From Romanomermis culicivorax (lineage: Eukaryota; Nematoda; Enoplea; Mermithida; Mermithidae): a stretch of 64,000 nucleotides of DNA. The stretch lies in NCBI GenBank assembly GCA_963922205.1, contig CAWUHX010000281.1, positions 310,001 through 374,000 of the forward strand. Direction: 5' to 3'. Positions 3,072 through 38,511 of this stretch are shown here, piece by piece (within the stretch, counting starts at the first letter, position 1; every line of letters starts with the position of its first letter). A model generated the notes under the pieces. It made no database searches. It worked only from the letters and a program-made list of their open reading frames with translations, and was not told where the DNA came from. The translations under genes and the position numbers were made by a program.

Positions 3072-4166
3072 CTAATCCTCGTTGTCGTCAATTTGTATAT
3101 CCTTTTCTAAAATCCAGCTGTTGAATTTTTGAGGATAACCCCACAACTTCACAAGTACTCTATTCAGACCATCCGGTAAATGTTTAGTTTTCAAAACCTT
3201 TTCAATTTTGTATTCTTTGATATTAGGATTAAAATCAATTTTCTGTAGTTCTTTTTCATAAAAACGTCCTTCTATATCTTCGCCTTCCAAATCTTGAATT
3301 CTATAGAGTATATGATTTTTAGTCTCCACAATATGTTTTACTTTGAAAACTTCTTCAATCCATTGAGGTAAATAACCTTTGTCAAATACACCTCTATGTT
3401 TACTAATTCGCACGTAATCTCCTATATCAATCTTAGACTTTCTAGTGTATAATCTTTCAGGGTAGAGTCTTTGCCATATAATTTTTTTGTTAGAATAATC
3501 TACATTAATAGGTTTTTCCTTAATCAATCTATGAACAGAGTGATTGTAGTTGGAAACAACTGAGGGTAAAATATCGATCCATTTATAAGTGGTAAACTCT
3601 GTAAAATATTTAAATAATTTAGTTTTATAAGTTCTATTAAAGGGTTCCACTATTGAACATTCAATGTCTTCATTTTGAGAAGTAAAAAAATGTATATCAT
3701 TAGTTTTCAATAATTTCTGGAAATCTTTGTTGACAAATTCTTTTCCTTTATTGCTGCGCACTCTCCAAGGGATTCGACTTCTTTTTAAAATATTTTGAAA
3801 AGCATCACAAACATTCTCTGCGTGTTTTGATTTTAATGGTTCAACCCATGGGTATTTACTTAATACATCTATACATGTAAACATAAATTTGTATCCATCG
3901 TTAAAATCTGCTAAAGAAGACATATCTGCCAAATCAATTCCCTATTCTTGATCCATAGCTGTAACATAAATATGATTACGTGAAAATTTTTTGTTGACTT
4001 GTTTATGTAAGGTATAACTATTTTGTTTTGAAAGCCAATCTTTAACATTTTTACATGTAATTGTTTTACGGTGTTTTCTAGCTTCAACATATAATTTTTC
4101 AATACTAGAAAAAGCTGTAGGATTTGGGTGTAAATTTTTGTATAATTTCGAAAGTAACGTGTTCAT
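3072..4166 (-). pseudogene. Retroviral-type (rve) integrase with chromodomain, nonsense-interrupted
   Basis: The gene starts at an ATG at 4166 (MNTLLSKLY). The N-terminal part carries IEKLYVEARKH and YTLHKQVNKKFSRN, typical of Polinton integrases. A TAG at 3944-3942 then stops the frame four residues before the first catalytic Asp of the DDE core (DLADMSSLADF). The frame continues open beyond it to 3072. The second catalytic position, normally Asp in R-S-D-K-G, reads RSNKGKEF, an Asp to Asn change. The Glu region (VEPFNRT) is present. The C-terminus has the chromodomain-like YKIEKVLK...WGYP...NSWI. The nonsense codon and the Asp loss together indicate an inactive enzyme. Confidence 0.85.
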
Positions 4167-22965: not shown

Positions 22966-23423
22966 TCCCCCATTGGAACATGTAAAATGTGTGATATTGA
23001 TAACAATTATGCTTGTGGCAATGATCGTTTTTTCATCATTATTCTAAATTATCGTAAATTATGCATCATAATTGAAAAAAGTTGAATTGAGCAAAGCAGG
23101 CACAGCAGTAATATAGAAGCTACACTCCATGGAAAATGTATAGGCAACTTCATAGCTCCAGTGTTGTACAAATAATCAAACCTTGCTCATAATTTTCAAC
23201 TCACCCACATAATACTACTATGATGTTGGCACATGGTGATTGGTACGAGCATTCCACACTACATGTAGAACATACGAAAATCGTCAGCATTATAATGTTT
23301 GCTCAGTGATCTACCATATTTTCCAGTACAGAGCTTAATTTCGTGGACACGTAGTCGATCATTCTTTCATATAGGAGTTAGAATCGTACAGACTGTATAA
23401 CATTTTTTTCAATTTTGGAGAAA

Positions 23424-26400
23424 ATGGACATCAATCCTCTCAACAATGTTATCCTCGATCAACGAATTGATATTCCGATAACGAAACATTTCGAACAATA
23501 TCCGGTCAATGATTTCCGCAAAGATTTCTTTACTTCTGACGTCCATAAAATTTATCATATTCATTTCATTATCGGTCTTTTAACTTCCATCGCCAGCAGT
23601 AAAGGAACGTTCAAGAATATTTTCTTTAGACGAGTTGGCAACAAAAATTTGCGTATATTTGTGGTGCAAGGTGAGAAAATCATTTTCCATAATATTTTCT
23701 ATGAATCCAACACCGATGGAGCTTTGCATACTGTGACAGAATACGAAAAGTATTTCCTAAGAAAGGCTATGAAACATTCGAAGTTTATCACTGCACCAAA
23801 TAAGAATTTTCAAAATTTTGAATACTTGGTCAAAATTGTTCCGAAGAATCACGAACAAAGTGTTGAACATTTCACGATGCGTTTGGAAATGGTAGATGAA
23901 CATCAACATTTTACGCCAAAGCTAACAGCACAAGCACAAAATGAGCTAACAGCACAAGCACACATGCAGATAGTAGTCAGCAATGAAAAATTATTCCGAG
24001 AAATCTATGGCAAAAATCAGTTTACCATCCAATCATTGACAAAAATTACAGATTCTACACTCGCGCATTGGAGTTTAGAAGAATTTTCCTATAATGAGCC
24101 AATAGCCAAAGCTGGTCTGTCCCAGGGATTCATATTTAAAACCCTACCCAATATATACTACAACATTTTACGCCAAAGTCCTTTGCCTATTGTATCTTAC
24201 AGGGATGGTGCCCTGTCTATGTGTTTACCAGAAAACAGCTTGCGCAATAGTTATGCTTTATTTACTTTCCCGCCAAAAAGAACTGTCGGCTATCATCTAT
24301 TGTTGGGAGCTAGAAGGAAAGATATCACGATACATGAGATGAATATTCAAATCATGAACGAAAATCGAAAAATTGATGCCAGATATGTTAAACTGAGCTT
24401 AGAAAATATTCTCGAGGATATGAGCAATGAAGTTTTGGCAAACATGGATGTTACAACTTCACGAGAATATTCTGAAATAATCAGGAATTTTTTTAAATTA
24501 CATGGGGTGTTCAGTACGGAACAATTGAAAGCTTTTTCACTTGGACTGTTTAGAACAGTGCCCGCTGCCCATACGTCCATATCTGTTGGATTAGCCAATG
24601 GTCTGCTCAGATCCATGATATTTGAACACAATGATGTTGAAATTTGGATCACTTTCGATGCAGCGAGTAAGAAAAATCCTGGAACACTGACTAAAAACAC
24701 TCCTCAATGTGACATCTTACAACTCAACTTTGAGCCTGGATTTGAAATTTCTGTATCAATGGTATCCAAGTCTGATCTGCAACCAGCACAGCCTTTCGAA
24801 GCACATGGTCATCTCGAATTCAACAACATTCTTCAAAAAATGGTTAGTGGTTCACATGACGTGCCACCGCTTGACACAATATGGAAACTGCAGTCTACTC
24901 TAGATAGCTTGATCAATAAGATCAGGCACATTCCTGAGATATATTCGAACCTTCATATGTATTTTGCTGGAATGGCATCTCACTGTTGTGTATGGCGGTA
25001 TAAGGAAACATCGGAATGGGAGCATCAAGATGGAGAGCTATTATATCCAGTTTGGAATGGAAATCTTATCAAACAGGTTTCTTTCAAGTTTCATAATAGA
25101 AGGCATGATGCTGCTCGTTCCATCCTGGCCCCTGGACGATTTGAACCGAGCTATTCCATGAGCATAGCCTACAATGCTGACACTGATGAAATATCTATCC
25201 TTGGATTAGACCAAGAGACACAGCAGTACACAACCGATGGTGTCGCAAAAATTTGCACTTCCCGAAGAAGAAAACGCTACAGTTTTTCGGTTTGTTCTTC
25301 AATCGAGAATCAACACGAAACCAAATATAATAAAGAGGATGATAGTTTCAAAATTGGAGATGAACAAGTGAAGAAGATGATAATGATGAAAGATGCCAAA
25401 CTCAGAGCGCAGTTGGAAAAAGTGTACGAGATATCCGGCAAAATACAACTGGCATTTGTGGGCAGAGATTTAATTGGTGATGCAGTTCGGGGTGATGTTG
25501 AAGGATTGGTCAGGGATGGGCTTTTCTTTGGTGGCATTACTTTGGCGCAAAAGGCTGGAGATGTGGCCGCAATGTATGGAAAATCTGTAGGAAGTGTGGG
25601 CATCACTTCTGCTGGCCTTTGTTTACCAAATCTAGCCTTTGATGCATATATGGCGTACCAAATGATTCAGCAGATAAAGCAGAAGGATACTATCAATGCC
25701 GTCAGCACTGGAGTATATATTGCAATTGATGTGGCCAAGTGCGTGTTGGAAGCAATGGCTGTATTCGGCTTAATCACACTAAATCCTTGGATCATTCCTG
25801 CAATGGTTATCACTAATGTTGCTATACTTATTGGCCAGAATATCTACGATACAGTCAAAAAAATTAAAGAAATCGATCACATTGTTCACCTCTCGACAGG
25901 TGAATACACGTACGAATTTGTGCGAGAATTTTTGAAAATGGGCACCGATCCATACATTCAACATCTGGCAGATGAGAAACAAGCCAATGAACAAGTAGCT
26001 TCCCGATTATTCGAAATTTATCCAAATATGAAACGTTTTGTAGTAAGTGCAGCCATATATGATGAACACAAAAGCATTACGTTCATTGACGACAATCGAA
26101 TTGATTTGACCAGGATAAGTTCTATTAAAGCAAAAAGTAGAGCTATGCCAGAAATGAAAAAGAACAGAATGTACTATTGTGCCATGAGCCAAGAGCCCCA
26201 TTCACAATCTTTATTCCAGAAGATAGTCAATGTTATTATGTACTCAAGCATTTGGGGGATTTTGCAGTCAATGACACATAAAGAAATTGGACAAGAATTC
26301 CATGACTTCCAATGCCTTAATGCATTTGGAGTTTCGACAGCTGATGCTCAGCATTCCGAAAAAACCATGTTCCTTTTATTTGATGGTATAGATAACGTTA

Positions 26401-28004
26401 ATGGATTCCCATATGCATCCAATGTATTCCACATTGGAAATGGCTCCAAGTTTATCCGAGGTGGCGACTGTGATGATTATTTCAAAATAATAGCCGAAAA
26501 TGTCAATGGTTATTTCGATGGTGGAGATGGTTATGATACACTGGATTTGAGTGAATTTGGTTCCAATCATCCTTTGACCATAGAAGGCGACACTGCTGTA
26601 GAATGGTCGACTGGTAAATTGGAAAGTTTTCAAATTTCAAATATTGAGAACATTATTGGACGTAAACATTTCTCTGATTATATATTAGTATGTAATCAGA
26701 GTAGAATAGATCTGGCTGGAACGAATTATGGTCTTGATGAGGTAGCAATCAAGAATGATGGAAAAAATGATTGCACGGCCCCAACAAATTTGACAATCTA
26801 TTTGCGAAACACAACTAATGTCGTGTGCTATCATCCAGAAGCCAAAGTAACGTATCTAGTGATGCAGGAAAGTGTTGCTATAGTCGAAGCTCACAATGGA
26901 TCACATCATTTCTACTTTCAAGGTCTGGAACTGATTGATATCACAGTGGTAGGCTTTGATGATGATACGCTACTTTTAAAATATGGTGGAAAAGAAGCTA
27001 ATGGTACTCTGCTTGTTGATAATTTATCAAATGTCAGTATGGAATTTGATGATGGCGTGAAAATCAAATCTTCAGGCAATAGCCTAGTTGCACATTTGGA
27101 GAGAGCAGAATCTTTATTCGATGTTATAGAAAAATATGAAAAATTCATAGAAAATAATAAATTCGTGACATTGGTGGCTGAAACAATGCAAGGAACAGTC
27201 ATTCTTCATCAGAGTCGACGCTCAATTGAAATGAGCGGCACAAGAACAAATATGAATATCATAGTCAATGGTGACAAACTCGATGCTGACCTAATAGGTC
27301 ATGTTAATGCAAGCAATTATTTCCTTGTATTTGGTGAGCAGTTGGATTGGTCGCAAGTAATTGATTTGAAAATCTACACTCAGAACATGGCTGCATTTAT
27401 AGACTTGCATCAAATGGCTAGGTCGATACACGAAAAAACTGATGGTGAATACGGTTTGCATGTTTTGGCTAAAAGATCACCAGATGATAATGCAAATATT
27501 GAACTTCAAATCCAAGCAATGCCGAACAAAGATGATATGGCCACCATCGATTTGGGCAAAATAACAGTCATGAATGGCATTAAGAATATTGACAAAATCA
27601 TCATCCATTTTTACAATACAAATTTGTTGAGTTTAGTTGATGAGAATGTAGAAGAAGTAATGCTCGGCCAATCAGTGATGCATAAATCAGAGTCGATAAT
27701 TACCATATTACCAGGCCAACTTGATTTTTACAGTAAACTTCTTGTCGACTGTAAGGCGGGTGAAGAATTTGAGCCATTTTTTGTCAATGGTACTTTGATG
27801 CTCACTAATTTAGCATCTCATCAGACATCGGTGGAGAACGAAGATCAAATGATGACCATTTTCTTGTACGATTTCAAACTCTACAAAAACAAATATCGAA
27901 CTATCGATTTGGTTTTCGAAGATAAGACGTTGAAATTAGATGATTATGTTCAAATGTTGAATGATATTGAGAGCATTGATGCTTTTTGGAATAAGCTAGA
28001 CTAA
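23424..28004 (+). CDS. Large single-exon RTX-like protein with hydrophobic hairpin, possible bacterial-origin gene
   Basis: The first ATG is at 23424 (the frame is open a little further back, without an ATG), giving 1526 residues and no intron. N-terminal 600 residues: unrecognised, no obvious signal peptide. SRRRKRYS near residue 614 is a furin-type basic site. Hydrophobic segments cover about 695-745 and 755-810 (ITLNPWIIPAMVITNVAILIG), separated by a short charged stretch. Residues about 1010-1080 read GGDCDDYF, FDGGDGYDTLDLSEFG and SNIENIIGRKHFSDYIL, a degenerate hemolysin-type (RTX) Ca-binding pattern of the kind in bacterial secreted proteins. The last 450 residues look beta-rich with several N-glycosylation sequons. 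Cytotoxin-like architecture (cleavable N-part, membrane-inserting middle, repeat C-part) is inference. A young 24-bp tandem duplication lies at 23920-23967. Confidence 0.7.
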   Translation: MDINPLNNVILDQRIDIPITKHFEQYPVNDFRKDFFTSDVHKIYHIHFIIGLLTSIASSKGTFKNIFFRRVGNKNLRIFVVQGEKIIFHNIFYESNTDGALHTVTEYEKYFLRKAMKHSKFITAPNKNFQNFEYLVKIVPKNHEQSVEHFTMRLEMVDEHQHFTPKLTAQAQNELTAQAHMQIVVSNEKLFREIYGKNQFTIQSLTKITDSTLAHWSLEEFSYNEPIAKAGLSQGFIFKTLPNIYYNILRQSPLPIVSYRDGALSMCLPENSLRNSYALFTFPPKRTVGYHLLLGARRKDITIHEMNIQIMNENRKIDARYVKLSLENILEDMSNEVLANMDVTTSREYSEIIRNFFKLHGVFSTEQLKAFSLGLFRTVPAAHTSISVGLANGLLRSMIFEHNDVEIWITFDAASKKNPGTLTKNTPQCDILQLNFEPGFEISVSMVSKSDLQPAQPFEAHGHLEFNNILQKMVSGSHDVPPLDTIWKLQSTLDSLINKIRHIPEIYSNLHMYFAGMASHCCVWRYKETSEWEHQDGELLYPVWNGNLIKQVSFKFHNRRHDAARSILAPGRFEPSYSMSIAYNADTDEISILGLDQETQQYTTDGVAKICTSRRRKRYSFSVCSSIENQHETKYNKEDDSFKIGDEQVKKMIMMKDAKLRAQLEKVYEISGKIQLAFVGRDLIGDAVRGDVEGLVRDGLFFGGITLAQKAGDVAAMYGKSVGSVGITSAGLCLPNLAFDAYMAYQMIQQIKQKDTINAVSTGVYIAIDVAKCVLEAMAVFGLITLNPWIIPAMVITNVAILIGQNIYDTVKKIKEIDHIVHLSTGEYTYEFVREFLKMGTDPYIQHLADEKQANEQVASRLFEIYPNMKRFVVSAAIYDEHKSITFIDDNRIDLTRISSIKAKSRAMPEMKKNRMYYCAMSQEPHSQSLFQKIVNVIMYSSIWGILQSMTHKEIGQEFHDFQCLNAFGVSTADAQHSEKTMFLLFDGIDNVNGFPYASNVFHIGNGSKFIRGGDCDDYFKIIAENVNGYFDGGDGYDTLDLSEFGSNHPLTIEGDTAVEWSTGKLESFQISNIENIIGRKHFSDYILVCNQSRIDLAGTNYGLDEVAIKNDGKNDCTAPTNLTIYLRNTTNVVCYHPEAKVTYLVMQESVAIVEAHNGSHHFYFQGLELIDITVVGFDDDTLLLKYGGKEANGTLLVDNLSNVSMEFDDGVKIKSSGNSLVAHLERAESLFDVIEKYEKFIENNKFVTLVAETMQGTVILHQSRRSIEMSGTRTNMNIIVNGDKLDADLIGHVNASNYFLVFGEQLDWSQVIDLKIYTQNMAAFIDLHQMARSIHEKTDGEYGLHVLAKRSPDDNANIELQIQAMPNKDDMATIDLGKITVMNGIKNIDKIIIHFYNTNLLSLVDENVEEVMLGQSVMHKSESIITILPGQLDFYSKLLVDCKAGEEFEPFFVNGTLMLTNLASHQTSVENEDQMMTIFLYDFKLYKNKYRTIDLVFEDKTLKLDDYVQMLNDIESIDAFWNKLD

Positions 28005-28149: not shown

Positions 28150-28821
28150 TATTTGTCGCCATCTTTGTATTTTGTCAGCTCCTTATATCGAATTTTGAAA
28201 AATACAGAATAAAAGAAAAAATCGCATTCTTCATTTCGGTACGTGGAAGATTTCTAGTAATATTAGTGAAATAACTCACTTATCTGGTATAAAACTATTG
28301 TCCTGATTAATCTGTATTCGTTTTTATATTTTATTGAACAAAACCTCATCAATGAATTATTCCATGAACAAAATTTTGAGTCTAGGACCAATATGTGAAA
28401 TTTTAAGCAAAAAATACAACTCACTTGGAGAAAACAGCAACACAAATAATTAGATCATTTCTTTGCAGTACAGTATACTCGGCTCTCAATCTCCCTGCAT
28501 CATGCACCTGAGAACTTTGACCTCTATATTAATTTTTAATCATCTGTACAGTCTAAAACTTTTCCAGTACTCATGTTTTAACTGTTTTCAATGCTGCTAA
28601 CTGCATACGAATTCAGAAATATTCAGTTGCTTCAGAAACTCCTTTTATCACATTTCTGAAAAAAATTTTAAATCATCAGATCGCAAGATTCCCTCAGAAA
28701 ACTGCAATGTGAAACAGTGACTCCGAAAATTCATCAGGCAACTGATCCTCATAGATTTTCATTAAAAACAGTCATTGATCTGCTAATTATTATACTTCCT
28801 GATCAACTTGATCTAATCCAG
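28150..28821. other. Intergenic, start of satellite-like repeats
   Basis: No gene. From about 28690 the sequence begins to resemble the satellite unit described next (ATCAGATCGC, GATCTGCTAATTATTATACTTCC), but more diverged. Confidence 0.35.
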
Positions 28822-29079
28822 ATTAAAAACTTTCGGACATCAGACGACATGGAAAACAATACCCAGCGACTGCTCTGCATCGAATTTCCTTCGAAAAATA
28901 AGCATCATCTGCTAATTTTTATACTTCCTAATCAATTTGATTTGATCTAGATAGAAAATTCGCAGACATCAGATCACAGTGAAAACAATACCCAGCAACG
29001 GCTCTGCATGGAATTTAGTCAAAAACAACTGTTGATCCACTAATTTTTTACTTCCGGATCAATGTGATTGGATCCAGAT
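28822..29079 (+). repeat. Satellite, ~127-bp unit, left of the LTR element
   Basis: Two units (28822-28948 and 28949-29075) share GACATCAGA, AACAATACCCAGC, GGCTCTGCAT/GCTCTGCATCGAATTT, and a tail of the form ACTTCCnnATCAAnnTGAT. A diverged unit precedes them, and the array resumes at 38385 after the LTR element. Unit boundaries fall at AGAT. Confidence 0.75.
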
Positions 29080-29980
29080 TGTAACGACCAGATTTGTGTG
29101 AGGTACTTTACTTCTAACCAATCGGTCGATACGGCGGGGACAAATAACGGGACGGTGGCGCGGGCGGTACGGTTACAATAACAACGGATGATCGACGGTC
29201 GCTTGAACGTGGACAATAAAACGCGTTTCGATTTATAATACGAACGGGGGCCTCGGTTTAAGTTGCTTTTGGAAAGTCGGCCGCTTGCAAATGTATAAAA
29301 AGACGGGGCGGACGCGGAGGTCAAAAACGTAAAATCACAAGAATAAGAAGAAGGCCTAAATCACGCTTTGCTTCTTCTTTTATACGGCAATTTTGGCCAC
29401 TCCCTGGGCGTCGCGGGAGGTCGAGCTTCTGTCCATCTTCTTTCGCCAATCGTCGTTTCCTGCTATGCTTTTTATGCTTACTTAATTACGCCTCTCTAAC
29501 GCTTTTCTGGTACCGTATGCTTTCTGTGCTTTGCTTGCTTTCTACGGTGGGCTTGGCCACACCTCTGTGCTTCTGTGCATGCTTCCTGTATCGGTTTCTC
29601 TGTATACACATGTTTTGTGGGGCCGCCGCTACCGCTACACTTGAGACTACTGTACGGCGGGGCTTCTACGTATTTTACTATGTGCAGGTGTTGTTTACGA
29701 TTTTTACGGGGGATTACGGTAGCTCTGGAATGTGTAGTTTTAGTGTAGGTTCTAGGGGAACAGCTGCCCTTTGTGCAAATTAATTAGGGCGTCTTAATTG
29801 GGCTACCGGGGTGTGAACGGATCAAAATAAAGTACTTCACGTAATTTTGTAGGAATGTTTGGGTGTGAATCCCAGACACCCTTGAGACGATAAAATGTGA
29901 AAATAAAATAATATCTAATAAATGTCTATTACATACAGTATGCTACATATTTACAGTACTGCTTTAGCAGGTACGTTACA
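29080..29980 (-). repeat. 3' LTR of the element (901 bp)
   Basis: Nearly identical to 37484-38384; ends TGTAACG...CGTTACA are inverted as in retroviral LTRs. A satellite AGAT repeat abuts its left end. Frames of 80-140 codons exist on both strands in both LTRs but show no domain and are probably not genes. Confidence 0.95.
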
Positions 29981-29991
29981 TTTCCCTCCTT
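29981..29991 (-). promoter_or_regulatory. Polypurine tract
   Basis: On the minus strand AAGGAGGGAAA directly precedes the 3' LTR (TGTAACG). It is the plus-strand primer site for reverse transcription and lies about 20 bases after the integrase stop. Confidence 0.8.
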
Positions 29992-30011
29992 CCAGAGTTG
30001 AACATCCTCAT

Positions 30012-33000
30012 TCAAGGCTTTCGAGGTTGAGGAGGGGTGGCGGTAGATTCGTTAGCTGCTTTCCGAGGGTAGAAAGGGGTTGTCTCGTTGACATGCACCG
30101 TAAATGTAATATTCTTATGGGGGTGTTTAAGTGTAACGTTGGGGTACATGAAATTTGTAACTGTATAGGGCCCGTTTTGGCGAGGGAGGAATTTCGGAGT
30201 CAACCCTTGTTTACACGAATGATTTTTATAAAGAATAAGATCACCTGCCTTGTAATGTATGTTCTGTGCATGCTTGTTATACTGACGGGTATAGTGGGCT
30301 TGGGCTTTTTGCAAACTTTTCTGCACGGTTGAGAGTGCTTCTGTAAAATGCGATTTTACACGAAGGGCGTAATCGTCTAAATCAACCATGTAGGACGTGG
30401 GGAAAAAGTTTAAGGCTGCGTCTGATGGCAGATTAGCTTGCCTACCGTGGAGTAATTCAAATGGGGGATACGAAGTGCTATCATTTTTGTGAATGTTGAT
30501 CGAAAAAACGGCATATGGGAGATAAGTATCCCAATCAGTGTGATTTGAATTGATGTACATGCGGATACGGGTGGCTAAGGTTTGGTTGCAACGCTCAACT
30601 TCCCCATTGGCAATGGGATGGTATGGGGTGGTATGAATTTTCTGAGTGTTGCATAAACTAGTGATCCGTGAGAAGAGATCGGATACAAAATCGGAGCCAC
30701 GATCACAATGGATGATTTTTGGGGACCCATGACGGCAAACAATTTTGGTTACGAATAGCTTGGCAATAGTGGCTGCAGTGATGTCAGGGGTCGGGAATGC
30801 CTCTACATACTTTGTGAAATAATCGATGAAAACGACAATGAATCAATTGCCGTCTTCAGTGAGGGGTAACGGTCCCATGCAATCAACACCGACTCTATCA
30901 AATGGGCCAGTCGGCTGAATTGGTACCAAATTTGCATGTATTTTGTGTCGAAGACCTTTCTGGGTCTGGCATGGGTGGCAAGTTTGGCAGTAACATTTGA
31001 TATCACGGCTCATTTGGGGCCAAAAATATTTTTGTCTGAGCAAGTGTAAAGTTTTCCGGGCAGCAAAATGACCTGTGAATTTGCTGTCATGATGTGAGGC
31101 AATGAGTTGCTGGACCTGTGATTTGGGGATGTATAGTTTTGCCTGTTTGTCGACTATACGGAAGAGGATGTTTTGATGCACTGCGAATTTGATCAGAGTA
31201 AGGGGGTGTTTTTGGGCAATTCTTGCTAAAATACTTTTGACAGTTGGGTCAGTGCGTTGGAGTTCGGCAAAGTTTTTCTGTTGCTCTTCTTGTTCAGTTG
31301 CTTCGGCTTCAAGAACAGAATTGATGGTGGATATTTCGGGACGGGTTTCTAATTGCTCAATATCAAAGGATTGCTTTGCTGTCTGTGAGGGGAATCGAGA
31401 AACTGCATCTGCGTTGCGGTTAGCAGTGCCTTTCTTAGGTCGAATGTCTAGCTGAATACCAGAGAGGGCTAATCCCCAATGGGCAATGCGAGGGGACGGG
31501 TTTTCCTTTTGTAAGACTGCCTGAACTGCTGTATGGTCAGTGTGTACAATAACATGTTGCTGGAAAAGGTAAGGGCGGAAATACTTGACAAACTCAACTA
31601 CTGCAAGGGTTTCCAACTCAGTTATCGGGTAGTTGCGTTCTGCGGGCTTCAATGTGCGGCTCCCAAAAGCAATGGGGCGATCCTGACCTTTACTATCGAG
31701 TTGACTGAGAATGGCGCCGATTCCGAGTTTCCAGGCGTCAGTTTGCAAAATAAATGGTTTTGTGAAATCGAGATGCTGCATTATTGGGGCATGAATGAGT
31801 AATTCTTTTAGCTTGGTGAATGTGTTTTGCTGTTCGGGGCCCCAGGAAAATTCTGAGTTCTTTTTGAGTAGCAATGTGAGTGGGCTAGAAACTTGGGAGC
31901 AATTCGGGATGAATCTGCGATAATATGAGGGTAGGCCAAGGAATGACTTAACTTCTTTTGAGCTTTTGGGTGTGGGTATGTCATAAATGGCCTGTACCTT
32001 ATGGGGATCTGGTGAAATGCCTTGCTGGGAAATGACGTGGCCTAAGTATTGGACTTGGGGCTGGCAGAATTTGCATTTTTGTATGTTTAGCTTAAGGCCT
32101 GCTTGTGAGAATCAGGCAAGAATAGTGTCTAAACTTTCCAGCATTTGGGCATGGGAGTCTGCGAATACCAGAACATCGTCGAGATATACAAGGCATGTGT
32201 TCCATTGCAGACCCGAAAGAATAACATCCATTAACCTTTGGAATGTGGCTGGGGCATTGGTGAGTCCAAAAGGGAGGTAATTGAATTGATACTGGCCGGC
32301 TGAGCAAGTAAAGGCCGTTTTTTCTCTGTCTGCTTGTGCTATGGGAATGGAATAATATGCATTGGATTGGTCAAGGGACGTAAAATATTTCATTCCATGC
32401 AGGGTGTCTAGAATTTCGTCTATACGGGGCAAGGGGTAGGTATCTTTTTTGGTGACTTTGTTGAGGCCTCTAAAATCAATGCATAAAGGATGGCCTCCAT
32501 CTTTTTTGGGGACTAAAACTGTGTTGGTACACCAGGGAGAATTGCTTTGGCTTATGACACCTGCTGCTGCGAGTTGCTCAACTTCTGCTTGTATGATTTG
32601 CTTTTCTTTTGGGGAAGTCCGATAAAGTTGTCTACGTACGGGTTGGGAGCCATTGGTGTCAATTGTATGTGAAACAAGGGTGGTTCTACCTACATCCATT
32701 TTGGATTTAGCATATAATGTGGGATACTTCGATAGGGCGCGTAGGAGTTGCATTTTCTCGGTTTCTGTGAGGTCACTGGAGGCTAAATTAACATTTTCTT
32801 TTAACCATGTGAATGTATCAAAACGGTTGGGCTGGTTTTGCGTTGAAGGGGTTAGATTAGCGGGGGCATTTTGTTTTGGGATGAAACATGAGACTGTACC
32901 AATGCATGTTCCAGGGTAAAGAATTTGAGCTGTGTCTTGTGTGTTTAGGACTGATATGCGTATGCGACTGTTTTGATTTTCAGAGATACAAGCTGCGAAA

Positions 33001-33596
33001 TGGACTTTAGGATTCTGTTTGGGTTTCGGGGTGAATTCAAGCTGTTTGACCTGTAAGTACGATTTGGGCAAGGGGACAGTAAATTCGGTTACTGTACGGG
33101 GTGGTAATTCTAATTTTTCGTCTAAATAAGTTCCACCACGGGTCGAAAGTGGGCTGTATTCTAGGCCATCACAGGGTAATATGACATTGCCAAATTTGAC
33201 CTGAGATTTTTGATTGTTGATAGTGTATTCCGAAAATCGACTGAGAAAGTTTTTGCCTAGAAGGATGTCTGCTGTGCAATCTTTTTGGACATGGACCATT
33301 ATTGTTTCCTGGATTGTTTGGGCTGTTACTGTGACAAAAGTGGTTCCTACAAAGTGAATTGGGAGATTATTTGCTGCTTTTGCTTGGACTAGCGGGGGTT
33401 TCATGTCTAACTGTAGGATTTGAGCGATTCGGGAATCAATGAGTGAGTAAACTGCACCAGTGTCAATCATGCCTTTTGTCATTAGTTTGCCATTATGTGT
33501 GATTGGAATATAAGGGGTATGTTTTTCAGGCGCAATCTGGGGTAGCTTATTTGATCCAGATTGGTGGATTTGATTAATGAGTTCAATTGCAGGAGT
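30012..33596 (-). pseudogene. pol: pol: protease, reverse transcriptase, RNase H, integrase, with two internal TGA codons
   Basis: One minus-strand frame runs from 33596 to 30012. Protease: IDTGAVYSLID at about 33465. RT: IDFRGLNK, LPFGLTNAPATFQ and the catalytic VYLDDVLVF, ending in a TGA at 32114-32112. The frame stays open beyond it with thumb, RNase H (FILQTDAW, VIVHTDHTA) and the integrase H-H-C-C finger (HHDSKFTGHF ... CQTCHPCQ). The DDE core starts at VGVDCMGP, is cut by a TGA at 30842-30840, then shows HCDRGSDF and NGEVER, and a GPYTV (GPY/F) module. The order PR-RT-RH-INT defines Ty3/gypsy. Both stops are TGA where family members often have Arg, compatible with CGA to TGA decay. Confidence 0.92.
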
Positions 33597-34223
33597 TCAG
33601 GGGGTATCAATATCAACAAGGACGTATTTCTGCTGCGTTTGGGCTCCACGACGATTAGCTAATTCTAAGAGAGCATGGCCGAATGATGGGGGAATGGTCT
33701 CATGTAAATATCTGTTGTTTGATGGTATTTCATATGCATGTTCATGTGTGGCATGATGCTTGGGAGAGGGGAAATATTTTCGAAGAATGAGAAAAGAATA
33801 AAAGACGCCTGCAATAACTACAGTAATAACAGCTAGATTGATAATGATTTGCAGGGGTCCTTTGAGTAAATTGTTTAATCCGTCCGTGAGACTTTGGGTG
33901 GTACCGGTAATTACATGTTCTATGCCTTGACCGGCGCCAGAGAGTGTATTTCCGAGTGCTTGACCAGTGCCTGAGATCATGTTGTAAACTGTATCGGAAT
34001 TGAGAGACATTTGGGCTGTATAATTGACGAGTTTTTGGACAATGTGTTCGAGTGTGTGAGTTTTGTAAATGTATTGTTTCAAAAAGAGTAAGTTTGTCGA
34101 AATTGTTGCAAGTTGATCATGGAAAATTGCAGGTGTATTAAAATGGAAAAGGGAAAAATTTTGGTTCCAGACAATTTCTAAGGGTAAGTTTGTGACATGG
34201 GGGGATCCTGTTTCACTGACCAT
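33597..34223 (-). CDS. env: Envelope membrane-anchor region (TM part), upstream of pol
   Basis: This 208-residue frame overlaps the end of the gag-env frame in the -1 register. It has an amphipathic helical region (LEHIVQKLVNYTAQM), a Gly/Thr-rich stretch, one strong transmembrane segment (INLAVITVVIAGVFYSFLIL, about residues 128-148) and a basic-start cytoplasmic tail of about 60 residues. The layout is that of the C-terminal end of a type I viral fusion protein. It ends in a TGA (33599-33597) and the same frame then continues straight into the protease without another start, so anchor and pol share one register separated by a single stop. Whether it is made by frameshifting from the upstream frame, by splicing or from its own ATG cannot be told. 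Confidence 0.7.
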   Translation of the reverse strand: MVSETGSPHVTNLPLEIVWNQNFSLFHFNTPAIFHDQLATISTNLLFLKQYIYKTHTLEHIVQKLVNYTAQMSLNSDTVYNMISGTGQALGNTLSGAGQGIEHVITGTTQSLTDGLNNLLKGPLQIIINLAVITVVIAGVFYSFLILRKYFPSPKHHATHEHAYEIPSNNRYLHETIPPSFGHALLELANRRGAQTQQKYVLVDIDTP

Positions 34224-37036
34224 GTATTATTCTGTTTGTAAAGGGCTACATGCATGTGATGGCAGTCAACGGTTTGCGAAAAAGGGGTCAAATCGTTGCC
34301 TCCTGGATTCGAAAACATGAGTTCGGTTCCTACGAGAATGGGCAAAAGTTTGTAGCATGTTTGGTTGATTTTGTGGTTGTAAAAGATTTTAGATGCGTTT
34401 ACTTGTTTACAGGGCCAGACTCTGAGGGCTTCTCCTGTGAATTCTGCTATGATGTCTGTTCGCTGTAGGAATGCATGCGCTCCAAGGGTTGCATCAAGAC
34501 GTAAGATTTGCCATACGAGATCAAGGTGACGCTGTGCCTGTCTGCATAATTCACTCCATACGTTTTTGAAATTTCGAATTTCGAATTCCTGTATTTTGTC
34601 TGCTAGATAGTTTAGTTTCACATTAATGGGTTCAAAATCATCAAAATCGTATAGTATAGTATGAGTTTCGTTGGTTTTTGGGGTTAAAAATGCATTACGA
34701 TGTGGGGTGCTTTTGTCTAATTGTACGATAATGCCTTGTTCGGTTAGAATGCTGTCTTGGATTTCTGGGCAATTGGGGTTCGAAAAAACTGTATTTTTAA
34801 CCGAGAATGCACCTTGTAGCTCTTCTATAATCATGTGTGTTTGCGTGAGTTTGATGGGATGTGTATTTTTGTATTCGAAAGGGCATAAGTTTTCAAATGC
34901 TGTTTCATTCCAAATAATGGATCCGTCGGCTGTGACGCAATGACCTGATGTCCGTTTGCATGACCCCAGGTCGCCTAATGTACCTGTCATAGATTTTCCA
35001 TTCCAAGATGCTATTTGTCCTATTTCTATGATGACATTAGTGACTGAGGTACAATGGTCTGTACAACACCATGTGTATTCTATGCTTAGGGAGTTATTTG
35101 TTGACCAAAATCCTGGTTGGGTTTCATATAATTTTTGACCGTTGTGTTCTTTGTCTATAACGACTGCCTTACAACCATGTGGGGTTAGATTTTGCATTTC
35201 GGTTTGGTCGAAGACAATACCTTTTGATCCAAAAAATCCTGTATTAGTACAAATTTTGCGTTTGCGAACACTGCATTTATATGCATCTGTAATGTGGGGC
35301 TTAGTGGAAGGGATATAGATTTTTCTGAATGTTTGTATGGGTTTGTCTACTGTGGAAGGGGGCATGCATGATACAAGTTTCGGTATGCTGACTGAGTGAC
35401 CGCTCAATGAAGTTCCACACATCTGAAATTGGGCACTACACGCTGTGGGGATTATTATACAAAGAAAAATACAAAACATCGGCCAATAGAGTGTTTTAGT
35501 GGAGGGGGCGGGGTACTGTGTTTTTTCGTTGTGGCCGGTTTGGTGTTGGGGCTTTTGGTGTTGTCGTTTTGCGATTTTGAGCTGGGGGGGTGGCCGGTTT
35601 GAAATCTGAACATTCTGTAGAACTTTAGAAGTTGAGTTATGGGATGGGGTTTGGACTTGCTTACTTGTGGGGGTTGGTAGAAGTGTTTGAGGGGGGCGAA
35701 ATTGGTAGGGTTCAGGGGTCAGGCCATGGAGAAGGGATAACAAGTTGCGGCCTGTTTTGGACGGGGTTTCGGGGGCGGTGGGCGGCGTAGTGTCTTGCTT
35801 TCGGGGGATCTTGTAGCCTGCGGGGATGGTGGGCGGCGATTTTTCGATTTTTGCGGCTTCAGGCGTGGGGGGTGGTGACATGGCGCAGCAATCAGGTACG
35901 TCCAGATCAAGGACGTATTCCTCACTACCGCGGTGGGTGTTGGGCATAATGGTTCCTAAAGTAGTCTGATGGCCGTTAGTTATGGCGGGTAATTTTGAGT
36001 AAAATGCGGGATCATCAATGTCCATGAGGGGTTGGGGTTGCCTGTACTCAATGCAATTTTGAATATTACGACTCTGCTGATTTGGACAATATCTGCTTGT
36101 ATGACCTCTCTGCTTGCGTATGAAACATTGAAAATTGGAGTAGGGTTTTGAAAGGCAGTTATCTGATCTATGTCCTGTTTGGGAGCAGTGGATGCATCGG
36201 CTTTTACAATCATGTGTACTGTGATTATTACGGAAACAGATTTCACATGATTTTCGGGTGCCTACTGATTTACAATTACGAGCTACGTGTCCAATGTGTC
36301 CACACTGGAAGCATGTGGGCTGCCTAGGGGTGGTATTGTTCCTGTAAGCATTATTCCTGCTGAAAGTATTGTTACTGAAATTGTTGTAGCTACTTTGTTG
36401 TGGGGGTTGAGGTTTCTGTTTGATCTGCAATTGTAAATCTTTTACTTGTTGTTCTAACTGATGCAAAAGGTCCTGTTGGTCTGTGTTTTTGGTTAGAGAA
36501 AAGATGGGTTCGGGTTTTGGGGGTATGAAGGGAAGGACGTTAGATTTTAACTCGTTTCTAAGGATTTGCTGTTCAATGTAAGCTGCTTCATCTGACATTT
36601 CTTTTAGAGTTGCGAACCTTCTATACTTAATTGCTTCCCTGATTTCGTTTTGCATGCCTTCTACAAAGAGGGGTTTTATGATCATTTCTCGTGCGTCTGT
36701 GTTAAAGTTAGGGTAGGCGAGGGTTGCGAGATGTTCTAAATCAAATAAGAATTCCGTTACTGTTTCTGAAAGCTTTTGTTTTCTTTCGCGTAAGAATTGT
36801 TGATGTAACTCATTATCTCTATTGTTTGGGAAGAATGACTGTAATGCGACTTTATACTGCTCGTATGTGTGGGGAGGGTTTTCGGAATTTGCTAAACTTT
36901 TGAACTTTGCTAACGCGGCTCCTCCTAAATGAATTTCTAAACATGCCAACGTTAACTGTATGTCTGTATCTTTCATGCCTTGGAGTGCCATGAATTGTTC
37001 TAATCTTTTGTTCCATTCACCAAAATGTTGGGTCAT
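34178..37036 (-). CDS. gag-env: gag fused in frame to envelope ectodomain
   Basis: This is a continuous 952-residue frame. Residues 1-165 are a retrotransposon gag capsid region (FGEWNKRLEQFMALQ, FLFDLEHLA, FVEGMQNEIREAI). A Gln-rich coiled segment follows. At about 240-330 there are four zinc-knuckle-like fingers (CFQCGHIGHVARNC, CEIC..H..C, CIHCSQTGHRSDNC, and a fourth of C-x2-RK form that lacks one Cys). Residues about 340-510 are Pro-rich. Then comes a hydrophobic signal-like helix (MFCIFLCIIIPTACSA, about 515-532) and a Cys-rich ectodomain with several N-x-S/T sites (CGTSLSGHSV, YTWCCTDHC, ENLCPFEY, LRVWPCKQV). The ectodomain carries on in another frame as the anchor region. The glycoprotein resembles class III mononegavirus/chuvirus-like fusion proteins in outline; that is a weak impression. 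Confidence 0.82.
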   Translation of the reverse strand: MTQHFGEWNKRLEQFMALQGMKDTDIQLTLACLEIHLGGAALAKFKSLANSENPPHTYEQYKVALQSFFPNNRDNELHQQFLRERKQKLSETVTEFLFDLEHLATLAYPNFNTDAREMIIKPLFVEGMQNEIREAIKYRRFATLKEMSDEAAYIEQQILRNELKSNVLPFIPPKPEPIFSLTKNTDQQDLLHQLEQQVKDLQLQIKQKPQPPQQSSYNNFSNNTFSRNNAYRNNTTPRQPTCFQCGHIGHVARNCKSVGTRKSCEICFRNNHSTHDCKSRCIHCSQTGHRSDNCLSKPYSNFQCFIRKQRGHTSRYCPNQQSRNIQNCIEYRQPQPLMDIDDPAFYSKLPAITNGHQTTLGTIMPNTHRGSEEYVLDLDVPDCCAMSPPPTPEAAKIEKSPPTIPAGYKIPRKQDTTPPTAPETPSKTGRNLLSLLHGLTPEPYQFRPPQTLLPTPTSKQVQTPSHNSTSKVLQNVQISNRPPPQLKIAKRQHQKPQHQTGHNEKTQYPAPSTKTLYWPMFCIFLCIIIPTACSAQFQMCGTSLSGHSVSIPKLVSCMPPSTVDKPIQTFRKIYIPSTKPHITDAYKCSVRKRKICTNTGFFGSKGIVFDQTEMQNLTPHGCKAVVIDKEHNGQKLYETQPGFWSTNNSLSIEYTWCCTDHCTSVTNVIIEIGQIASWNGKSMTGTLGDLGSCKRTSGHCVTADGSIIWNETAFENLCPFEYKNTHPIKLTQTHMIIEELQGAFSVKNTVFSNPNCPEIQDSILTEQGIIVQLDKSTPHRNAFLTPKTNETHTILYDFDDFEPINVKLNYLADKIQEFEIRNFKNVWSELCRQAQRHLDLVWQILRLDATLGAHAFLQRTDIIAEFTGEALRVWPCKQVNASKIFYNHKINQTCYKLLPILVGTELMFSNPGGNDLTPFSQTVDCHHMHVALYKQNNTWSVKQDPPMSQTYP

Positions 37037-37063
37037 GCCGCCCGTGAATACTGTAGGTTTCGC

Positions 37064-37525
37064 CTAGAAATTGTTTGCCATGTTATTATGAATGTTTGCT
37101 GTTCTTAGATCGTCTATTAGGGTAGGGTTTACTGTATTCTGATTCAGTTGTGTGCGTAGGGTACGAAAATGTTCTGAAAATAAATCGTTTATCTGTTCTC
37201 TAATGATTTCTCCTAAATGATCTTGCGTTTGGTGGGTCATTCTTGGTTTACCTTGGGATTTCTGCTTAAATGCTTCAATTTTTGCTTCACGCTGTATTCG
37301 TTTAAATGTATCGCTTAATGTTTCGTTGGAGGGGATTTCCAGTTTGCTTTCTACGAATACTGTCTTACTGTAGGAAATGATTACTACTGTATTATCGAAT
37401 GCTTCTAAATGCCTGGATAAGAGTACACCTGATTGGGGGCTGGGAGTTCCACTGGTTAACGGTATGGTATGGTCACCAAAATATGTAACGACCAGATTTG
37501 TGTGAGGTACTTTACTTCTAACCAA
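37064..37525 (-). pseudogene. gag leader region, open through the primer site, TAG before gag
   Basis: A 153-codon frame in the same register as gag starts at an ATG at 37525, inside the 5' LTR, and crosses the LTR edge and the primer-site region without a stop. It ends in a TAG (37066-37064); nine codons later the gag-env ATG occurs. The residues between that TAG and the ATG (AKPTVFTGG) look like normal gag, so the TAG may be a C to T change (CAG) and the leader part of gag. Its C-terminal half is helical and charged (FKRIQREAKIEAFKQK). No known matrix domain recognised. Confidence 0.5.
37461..37478 (-). promoter_or_regulatory. Candidate tRNA primer-binding site
   Basis: Five bases inside the 5' LTR on the minus strand the sequence reads TGGTGACCATACCATACC. 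A PBS normally starts with TGG (pairing with tRNA CCA). I cannot name the tRNA from memory with confidence. Confidence 0.45.
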
Positions 37526-38384
37526 TCGGTCGATACGGCGGGGACAAATAACAGGACGGGGGCGCGGGCGGTACGGTTACGATAACAACGGATGATCGAC
37601 GGTCGCTTGAACGTCGACAATAAAACGCGTTTTGATTTATAATACGAACGGGGGCCTCGGTTTAAGTTGCTTTTGGATAGTCGGCCGCTTGCAAATGTAT
37701 AAAAAGACGGGGCGGACGCGGAGGTCAAAAACGTAAAATCACAAGAATAAGAAGAATGCCTAAATCACACTTTGCTTCTTCTTTTATACGGCAATTTTGG
37801 CCACTCCCTGGGTGTCGCGGGAGGTCGAGCTTCTGTCCATCTTCTTTCGCCAATCGTCGTTTCCTGCTACGCTTTTTATGCTTACTTAATTACGCCTCTC
37901 TAACGCTTTTCTGGTACCGTATGCTTTCTGTGCTTTGCTTGCTTTCTACGGTGGGCTTGGCCACACCTCTGTGCTTCTGTGCATGCTTCCTGTATCGGTT
38001 TCTCTGTATACACATGTTTTGTGGGGCCGCCGCTACCGCTACACTTGAGACTACTGTACGGCGGGGCTTCTACGTATTTTACTATGTGCAGGTGTTGTTT
38101 ACGATTTTTACGGGGGATTACGGTAGCTCTGGAATGTGTAGTTTTAGTGTAGGTTCTAGGGGAACAGCTGCCGTTTGTGCAAATTAATTAGGGCGTCTTA
38201 ATTGGGCTACCGGGGTGTGAACAGATCAAAATAAAGTACTTCACGTAATTTTGTAGGAATGTTTGGGTGTGAATCCCAGACACCCTTGAGACGATAAAAT
38301 GTGAAAATAAAATAATATCTAATAAATGTCTATTACATACAGTATGCTACATATTTACAGTACTGCTTTAGCAGGTACGTTACA
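37484..38384 (-). repeat. 5' LTR of the element (901 bp)
   Basis: Direct repeat of 29080-29980 with about a dozen differences by eye (for example CACAC here where the other has CACGC, and ACAGG for ACGGG). It carries the presumed promoter on the minus strand; on that strand a TTTTTATACATTTG-like region near 37700 could supply a TATA box. Confidence 0.95.
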
Positions 38385-38511
38385 AGATAAAAAATATTCA
38401 GACATCAGATCACACTCAAAACAATACCCAGTAACTGCTCTGCATCGAATTTCATAAAAAAAAAACTGTTGATCTAACAATTTTTTGACTTCCCGATCAA
38501 GTTGATCTGCT
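38385..38511 (+). repeat. Satellite unit right of the LTR element
   Basis: Begins AGATAAAAAATATTCAGACATCAGATCACA and continues in register with the 127-bp units at 28822-29075, confirming that the LTR element landed in the array at AGAT. Confidence 0.8.

What the first reader, a model, noticed from the sequence alone, without database searches (positions are those of the whole stretch)
29080..38384. LTR retroelement with gag-env-pol gene order
Seen: between the zinc knuckles of gag and the protease of pol lies a complete envelope-like layout: signal-like helix (about 35440-35500), Cys-rich ectodomain with N-glycosylation sites, one transmembrane segment (about 33780-33840) and a cytoplasmic tail. 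Pol (PR-RT-RH-INT with GPY/F) follows, and the polypurine tract and LTR come right after integrase, so there is no room for a 3' env. Known: retroviruses and env-bearing Ty3/gypsy elements such as errantiviruses carry env after pol, usually from a spliced mRNA. An env placed between gag and pol, with the ectodomain fused in frame to gag, implies a different expression strategy or a rearranged lineage.
Basis: partly seen in the sequence, partly recalled or inferred. Interest (0 to 1): 0.88.

Follow-up and report, generated by a model that had tools for sequence, protein, structure and literature searches.

The report
Retroviral element with mid-genome envelope
The genome of a roundworm, very likely a parasite of mosquito larvae, holds many copies of virus-like jumping elements whose envelope gene lies between the capsid and enzyme genes in one unbroken reading frame, so all three are likely made as a single chain that would thread through a membrane and then be cut apart, an arrangement our literature searches did not find described.

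Summary
The window carries a 9.3-kb Ty3/gypsy-type LTR element on the minus strand (901-bp LTRs, AGAT target duplication) with the order gag - env - PR-RT-RH-IN. It is not a freak copy: 31 of 32 fetched further copies have env directly upstream of PR, and 55 of 87 PR-RT matches have an env match exactly 603 nt upstream. Five families in the same genome (RT 39-57% identical to the window), and two more D-like ones (31-32%), share the order; many copies read gag-env-pol as one open frame of about 2,500 codons. The window copy itself is broken (four internal stops, one frame change). By profile the envelope is of class III type (Pfam Monjiviricetes_fusion in 5 of 5 families; herpesvirus gB in the PDB, best E=1.6e-6) and it is under purifying selection. 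RT and env trees agree, so one old capture is likely. Assembly statistics point to Romanomermis culicivorax v2. I infer a two-pass membrane polyprotein: an internal signal helix sends Env into the ER while Gag and Pol stay cytosolic, followed by proteolytic release. Splicing is the main rival and needs RNA data. New variant of a known kind, high interest.

The parts
37484..38384 (-). 5' LTR, 901 bp
   Evidence: 12 mismatches to the 3' LTR over 901 columns, TG...CA ends
29080..29980 (-). 3' LTR, 901 bp
38385..38388 (.). target-site duplication AGAT (partner at 29076-29079)
   Evidence: flank letters printed
37461..37478 (-). putative primer binding site (TGGTGACC...), five bases after the 5' LTR
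   Evidence: letters; tRNA partner not identified (inference). Family B has TTGGTGACC close to its 5' LTR
36500..37240 (-). gag: N-terminal part from a possible start Met at 37240, and capsid 36500-37063; in-frame TAG 37064-37066 in this copy
   Evidence: Retrotrans_gag (E=5.3e-4) and Ty3_capsid (9.6e-4), both below their Pfam cut-offs; N-terminal part and capsid in one frame in 20 of 20 other copies
36002..36493 (-). nucleocapsid part with CCHC zinc knuckles
   Evidence: zf-CCHC E=0.0017, just below its cut-off; further knuckles seen by eye in the translation
35522..36001 (-). proline-rich linker between zinc knuckles and env, with PTAP
   Evidence: PTAP in 15 of 20 family A copies L021-L040; dN/dS 0.35
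35417..35494 (-). internal hydrophobic signal-like helix of env
   Evidence: Kyte-Doolittle over 1.6; a helix at the same place in 7 of 7 families
34178..35416 (-). env ectodomain, Cys-rich, class III type by profile; reads in the gag frame
   Evidence: PF24664 E=4e-15; gB profile match of the five-family alignment; dN/dS 0.08-0.14
33873..34226 (-). membrane-proximal part of env, read in the pol frame in this copy
   Evidence: in the same frame as ectodomain and PR in 17 of 20 other copies
33771..33872 (-). env transmembrane anchor
   Evidence: Kyte-Doolittle maximum 2.40; positive C-terminal flank in 7 of 7 families
33600..33770 (-). env cytoplasmic tail; an in-frame TGA (33597-33599) follows in this copy, whereas the fetched copies align straight on into PR
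33222..33596 (-). aspartic protease (DTGA)
   Evidence: gag-asp_proteas E=6.5e-8; motif
32031..33221 (-). reverse transcriptase with the region before it (YLDD); TGA at 32112-32114 in this copy
   Evidence: RVT_1 E=8e-27; Ty3 RT best PDB match, E=8.2e-39
31460..31769 (-). RNase H
   Evidence: RT_RNaseH E=8.2e-36
30015..31130 (-). integrase: H2C2 zinc finger, core, GPY; TGA at 30843-30845 in this copy
   Evidence: Integrase_H2C2 E=9.9e-21, rve E=8.5e-9; GPY
29981..29993 (-). polypurine tract GGAAGGAGGGAAA
   Evidence: letters

Best explanation
This is a Ty3/gypsy-type LTR retroelement lineage that carries an envelope gene, of class III type by sequence profile, between gag and pol in one open reading frame, and the frame is likely translated as a single two-pass membrane polyprotein. 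Shown by sequence: the order, the shared frame in many copies, the two helices, the absence of a stop between env and PR in copies other than the window's, the purifying selection and the agreement of the env and RT trees. Inferred: Gag would stay in the cytosol, the internal signal helix would open translocation, the ectodomain would be made in the ER lumen, the anchor would stop translocation, and Pol would be made in the cytosol. Signal peptidase would then free the ectodomain from Gag and the element's own protease would free Pol, leaving Env anchored beside Gag in about equal amounts to bud as an enveloped particle. The envelope was likely captured once, from a negative-strand RNA virus of the Monjiviricetes (chuvirus or bornavirus side), before the families split.
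For: Order and copies: 20 of 20 fetched copies have envN-envC-anchor-PR in that order, 17 of 20 in one frame; gag to env in one frame in 19 of 20; 11 of 12 further copies, picked mostly for short frames, have env upstream of PR; 59 of 87 PR-RT matches (window included) pair with an env match upstream, 55 of them at exactly 603 nt, a multiple of three (both lists are capped, so 59 is a lower bound). One frame: 79 of 150 env matches and 54 of 87 PR-RT matches lie in frames of 2,400 aa or more, one of each with a stop inside the match (counted). Families: five with the same order and two further D-like ones with no stop in the pieces read. Env: PF24664 in 5 of 5, Glycoprotein_B weakly in 4 of 5 (best 0.0019), BDV_G in 2 of 5 (best 6e-6); seven PDB chains named glycoprotein B at 1.6e-6 to 1.5e-3, plus one herpesvirus-like entry named ORF8. 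PF24664 rings in 0 of 14 control genomes. Selection: dN/dS ectoN 0.14 (29 copies), ectoC 0.08 (31 rows), anchor and tail 0.11 (29), against RT 0.115 (11) and CA 0.084 (27). Common history: RT and env trees give the same family order with starred forks (rooted on D by choice). No conserved own start: no Met from 40 residues before to the end of the signal helix in families C and D2. Topology: positive net charge after the anchor in 7 of 7 families. No 3' env: 31 nt between integrase stop and LTR in A, 144 nt in B and 172 nt in C between the end of the integrase match and the LTR.
Against: No RNA or protein evidence; cleavage sites unknown. The flanks of the signal helix follow the positive-inside rule in only 4 of 7 families (B, B', D, D3); they are equal in A and reversed in C and D2. 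A Met lies in or within about 12 residues before the helix in A, B', D and D3, so an own start is not excluded there. The family D copy read here has one in-frame stop about 100 codons before its ectodomain, so in D gag may end before env. The structure model failed (pLDDT 31.5), so the class III fold rests on profiles alone. Single-sequence searches of the protein database found nothing, nor did a scan of viral contigs. An annotated R. culicivorax protein (P0001) joins a gag piece straight to the ectodomain, a gene model (I take it to be automatic) that could hint at splicing. Equal amounts of Gag, Env and Pol would be unusual. No 2A (NPGP) motif in the fetched loci. Copies for the selection test came from top-scoring lists, which favours conserved sequence; stop codons were skipped, RT and env were measured on different copies, and one copy enters ectoC twice.
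Confidence: 0.63

Rival explanations
1. Same gene order, but expressed by splicing: gag-pol comes from a message with env removed as an in-frame intron, and Env (still joined to Pol or spliced again) from a message that links the gag start codon to env. The one-frame layout would then simply reflect intron retention in the genomic RNA.
For: Cer1 of C. elegans makes its extra protein from a spliced message while its genomic RNA has no stop between gag and pol (PMC10309623, passages read). The UniRef protein P0001 joins gag to the env ectodomain and then to another stretch (how it was predicted was not checked).
Against: No strong donor consensus ([CA]AG|GTRAG) on the element strand of the window, but 0 found against 0.3 expected is uninformative. 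Of 32 fetched copies the only env-deleted one changes frame at its junction, so no retrocopy of a spliced message was seen. No stop ends env in the open copies, so a spliced env message would still run into pol.
Confidence: 0.29
2. The env region is a passenger or relic, such as an endogenised viral gene or host gene caught between gag and pol, with no role in the element.
For: The window copy is broken in gag, env and pol, and many copies have shorter frames: 71 of 150 env matches lie in frames under 2,400 aa.
Against: dN/dS 0.08-0.14 across env; long frames that hold env in several families and no stop in the pieces read of two D-like families; env and RT trees agree.
Confidence: 0.03
3. Assembly artefact, or a one-off nested insertion of a viral gene into a single element.
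For: None found.
Against: Clean LTRs and target duplication; the same order at dozens of separate loci on many contigs.
Confidence: 0.01

Closest known systems
Atlas virus of the hookworm Ancylostoma ceylanicum (Belpaoviridae; PMC9094657, passages read)
   Same: Nematode LTR element with a captured viral fusogen, all genes in one open frame without stops or introns (2,828-residue Gag-Pol-Env).
   Different: Bel/Pao not Ty3/gypsy; env at the end of the polyprotein; class II (phlebovirus-like) not class III type.
Tas of Ascaris (mentioned in PMC9094657, passages read)
   Same: Nematode LTR element whose env has weak similarity to herpesvirus gB, a class III fusogen.
   Different: Bel/Pao, with env after pol (position recalled, not read here). 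Not compared by sequence here.
Anakin / the mosquito Pao element with a chuvirus glycoprotein (PMC12440569 and PMC10084718, passages read; PMC7642597 seen only in search listings; that the two names mean one element is recalled)
   Same: Glycoprotein captured from a chuvirus by an LTR element.
   Different: Pao family; PMC10084718 reports no clear evidence of such capture by Gypsy or Copia elements.
Errantivirus (gypsy, ZAM; recalled, except that PMC12440569 passages name a likely baculovirus origin of its env)
   Same: Ty3/gypsy elements with envelope.
   Different: Env after pol from spliced mRNA; baculovirus F-like class I env.
Cer1 of C. elegans (PMC10309623, passages read)
   Same: Nematode Ty3/gypsy element with no stop between gag and pol.

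Membership tests
Ty3/gypsy (Metaviridae) | LTRs with TG...CA ends and a 4-6 bp target duplication | tested here: met
   One copy each: A AGAT; B GTAC; C TTTG. Not found for the B' copy; only a cut 58-bp repeat for D
Ty3/gypsy (Metaviridae) | pol order PR-RT-RH-IN with RT closest to Ty3 | tested here: met
   Pfam; Ty3 RT best PDB match at 8.2e-39. No tree with reference lineages was made.
Ty3/gypsy (Metaviridae) | Gag with Ty3-type capsid and CCHC knuckle | tested here: inconclusive
   Retrotrans_gag, Ty3_capsid and zf-CCHC found at 0.0005-0.002, each under its curated cut-off
Errantivirus | env after pol | tested here: not met
   31 nt between integrase stop and LTR; env upstream of PR in 31 of 32 fetched copies
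Errantivirus | class I, baculovirus F-like Env | tested here: not met
   No such Pfam family among the matches; for the window ectodomain the only family over its cut-off is PF24664
Belpaoviridae (Atlas, Tas, Anakin) | Bel/Pao protease and RT | tested here: not met
   No Bel/Pao-specific Pfam model among matches up to E=1 (which models are specific is recalled); Ty3 RT nearest in PDB
Class III viral fusogens | sequence-profile similarity to a class III protein | tested here: met
   PF24664 in 5 of 5 families; gB chains at 1.6e-6 to 1.5e-3 over a stretch of about 100-120 residues
Class III viral fusogens | class III fold with bipartite fusion loops | tested here: inconclusive
   AlphaFold2 model at pLDDT 31.5, not usable; fusion loops not examined
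Retrovirus (infectious, enveloped) | enveloped particles that infect cells | not testable with these tools
   Sequence only

The most novel reading that the evidence does not exclude
A lineage of nematode retroviruses builds capsid, fusion envelope and enzymes as one two-pass membrane polyprotein with the envelope in the middle, so every capsid protein is born tethered to its own fusogen: a third way to make an enveloped retrovirus, besides spliced env and terminal env in Gag-Pol-Env.
Probability: 0.53. Interest if true: 0.9.

Novelty: new variant of a known kind. Interest (0 to 1): 0.82.

Why it matters
Gene order gag-pol-env is treated as near universal in enveloped retroelements. A multi-family, probably recently active lineage with env inside the polyprotein shows that it is not obligatory, gives a natural test of how Gag, Env and Pol can be made from one chain across a membrane, and adds a likely capture of a class III-type fusogen by Ty3/gypsy elements. 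If the host is R. culicivorax, which parasitises mosquito larvae (and mosquito genomes hold chuvirus glycoprotein copies), it also bears on where such genes are exchanged.

Tried and rejected
Single-sequence protein searches with the ectodomain found nothing. IMG/VR viral contigs scanned with the five-family alignment: 58 stretches matched a pattern, none confirmed. PDB sequence search with the single ectodomain: nothing up to E=10. Structure prediction from two sequences failed, so no fold search was run. Late-domain motif PTAP (recalled motif): 15 of 20 family A copies L021-L040, none in the nine loci of other families, so not used as evidence. 2A motif NPGP (recalled): none. Splice consensus scan uninformative. 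A furin site of the form R-X-K/R-R (recalled) was not found in the gag-env frame. Considered and dropped: a host gene origin of env, an assembly artefact, a relic. No RT tree against named reference lineages: I had no reference set and typed none from memory.

Literature: ten searches, of which I saw titles and abstract starts. 'gag-env-pol' as a term gave 0 papers. No title or abstract start described env between gag and pol. The library holds open-access papers only and no bioRxiv collection. Six papers were read in passages (PMC10309623, PMC12440569, PMC9094657, PMC5408684, PMC10084718, PMC10879605); none was read whole.

Full report
Observation. The element lies on the minus strand at 29080-38384. 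Both LTRs are 901 bp with 12 mismatches; the outer flanks carry AGAT on each side. [quoted passage not shown] 31 nt separate the integrase stop from the 3' LTR, and a polypurine tract sits there. The window copy is damaged: in-frame stops begin at 37064, 33597, 32112 and 30843, and the frame changes between ectodomain and anchor.

The genome. The window belongs to an assembly of 359,112,060 bases in 595 contigs. Romanomermis culicivorax v2 is listed as 359.1 Mb in 595 scaffolds (PMC10879605, passages read), and a UniRef protein of R. culicivorax (P0001) matches this genome at 98% over 174 residues. I take the host to be that species; this is an inference.

Copies. The PR-RT piece gave 87 scored matches and an env piece 150, both capped lists. 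I fetched the DNA upstream of PR for 32 of the 87, none of them the window; env lies directly before PR in 31. The exception, L095, has lost the DNA between a point near the gag start and the anchor, with a change of frame at the junction. Of the first 20, 17 keep ectodomain, anchor and PR in one frame and 19 keep gag and env in one frame (frames of the alignments, single stops not excluded). Without fetching, 59 of 87 PR-RT matches pair with an env match upstream, 55 at exactly 603 nt; the window, with its frame change, is one of the other four. Frames of 2,400 aa or more hold 79 of the 150 env matches and 54 of the 87 PR-RT matches, one of each with a stop inside the match. So in many copies gag, env and pol are one open reading frame.

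Families. The Pfam envelope model gave 68 scored matches in this genome and none in 14 control genomes. I fetched 20 of the 68, mostly from the top of the list. By identity to the window they are 11 copies of A, 4 of B, 1 of B', 3 of C and 1 of D, with RT 55-57% (B), 56% (B'), 49-50% (C) and 39% (D) identical to the window. All 20 have gag (capsid, or in L062 only the zinc-knuckle part) upstream of env; 19 of 20 have RT downstream (L046 has none), and 19 of 20 have a PR match by BLAST (not L048, where Pfam finds a weak one). Two further D-like places (RT 31-32% to the window) show gag-env and env-PR-RT pieces with no stop in the frame. The B and C copies read have LTRs of 887 bp (no mismatch) and 575 bp (3 mismatches), 4-bp target duplications and no room for a 3' env. 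The B' copy is degraded and no LTR was found for it; for D only the first 58 bp of a likely LTR were fetched. The family D copy has one stop between gag and env, which tells against a single frame in that copy.

What env is. Alone, the window ectodomain matches PF24664 (Monjiviricetes_fusion). All five family ectodomains match it, the best at 5.2e-21; four match the glycoprotein B model weakly and two match the Borna disease virus G model. A profile of the five matches herpesvirus glycoprotein B chains in the PDB, the best at 1.6e-6, over about 100-120 residues. Glycoprotein B is a class III fusogen (established knowledge). The structure model was unusable, so the fold is supported by profile only. 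Invariant cysteines and other residues are spread along the alignment.

Is it in use. Pooled dN/dS between family A copies is 0.14 and 0.08 for the two halves of the ectodomain and 0.11 for anchor and tail, near RT (0.115) and capsid (0.084); the linker is laxer (0.35). Copies came from top-scoring lists and stops were skipped, so the values are somewhat low; RT was measured on 11 copies, env on 29 to 31 rows. RT and env trees of 11 rows give the same family order with starred forks; the capsid tree is poorly resolved and does not contradict it. The simplest reading is one capture before the families split.

How it would work. In open copies there is no stop between env and PR, and there is no conserved start codon at the env signal helix: in families C and D2 no Met lies from 40 residues upstream to the helix end, in B only one 38 residues upstream, while A, B', D and D3 have one in or near the helix. 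Each of seven families has a hydrophobic helix before the ectodomain and an anchor with a positive C-terminal flank. A chain with Gag in the cytosol, the ectodomain in the ER lumen and Pol in the cytosol fits this. Signal peptidase and the element's protease would have to cut it. The flanks of the signal helix obey the positive-inside rule in 4 of 7 families, so its orientation is not proven. Splicing is the chief rival: Cer1 uses it (PMC10309623, passages read), and the UniRef protein P0001 links gag to the ectodomain; but no spliced-out retrocopy was seen in the 32 copies.

Comparison. Atlas virus, a hookworm Bel/Pao element, has one Gag-Pol-Env frame with a class II Env at the end, and Tas of Ascaris has a gB-like env (PMC9094657, passages read). 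A mosquito Pao element caught a chuvirus glycoprotein, and no clear evidence of capture by Gypsy was reported (PMC10084718, passages read). Ten literature searches showed no title or abstract start with env between gag and pol. The finding is a new variant of a known kind: a Ty3/gypsy-type element with a class III-type Env in the middle of its reading frame.

Noticed in passing
L085:2284-3609: The family D copy has about 2.5 kb between integrase and the likely 3' LTR, with a 441-aa frame that resembles the exonuclease mut-7 (PDB 7jw2, E=2.4e-4; no Pfam match). Bdelloid rotifer LTR elements carry DEDDy exonuclease frames after pol (PMC5408684, passages read).
   Followed up: partly
window 35522-36001: PTAP, the sequence of a retroviral late-budding motif (recalled), occurs in the linker in 15 of 20 family A copies L021-L040 but in none of the nine fetched loci of other families.
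   Followed up: partly
window 28778-29016 and 38343-38509: Both flanks of the element carry related repeats with a spacing of about 129 bp: the element appears to sit inside a tandem-repeat array.
   Followed up: no
window 23382-28004: A 1,540-aa frame without a stop next to the element, with no Pfam match up to E=1.
   Followed up: no
window 3072-3941: Integrase-like frame that resembles those of Polinton/Maverick elements by eye; the assembly paper reports 6.5 Mb of polintons in R. culicivorax.
   Followed up: no
G000:C122:530993-540883: Two family A copies in tandem; the first PR-RT match lies in an open frame of 3,612 aa.
   Followed up: no
L048:1276-2790: Weak dCTP-deaminase/dUTPase-like match between PR and RT in family D (PF22769, E=0.0047, under the cut-off); rotifer elements have a dUTPase there.
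   Followed up: no
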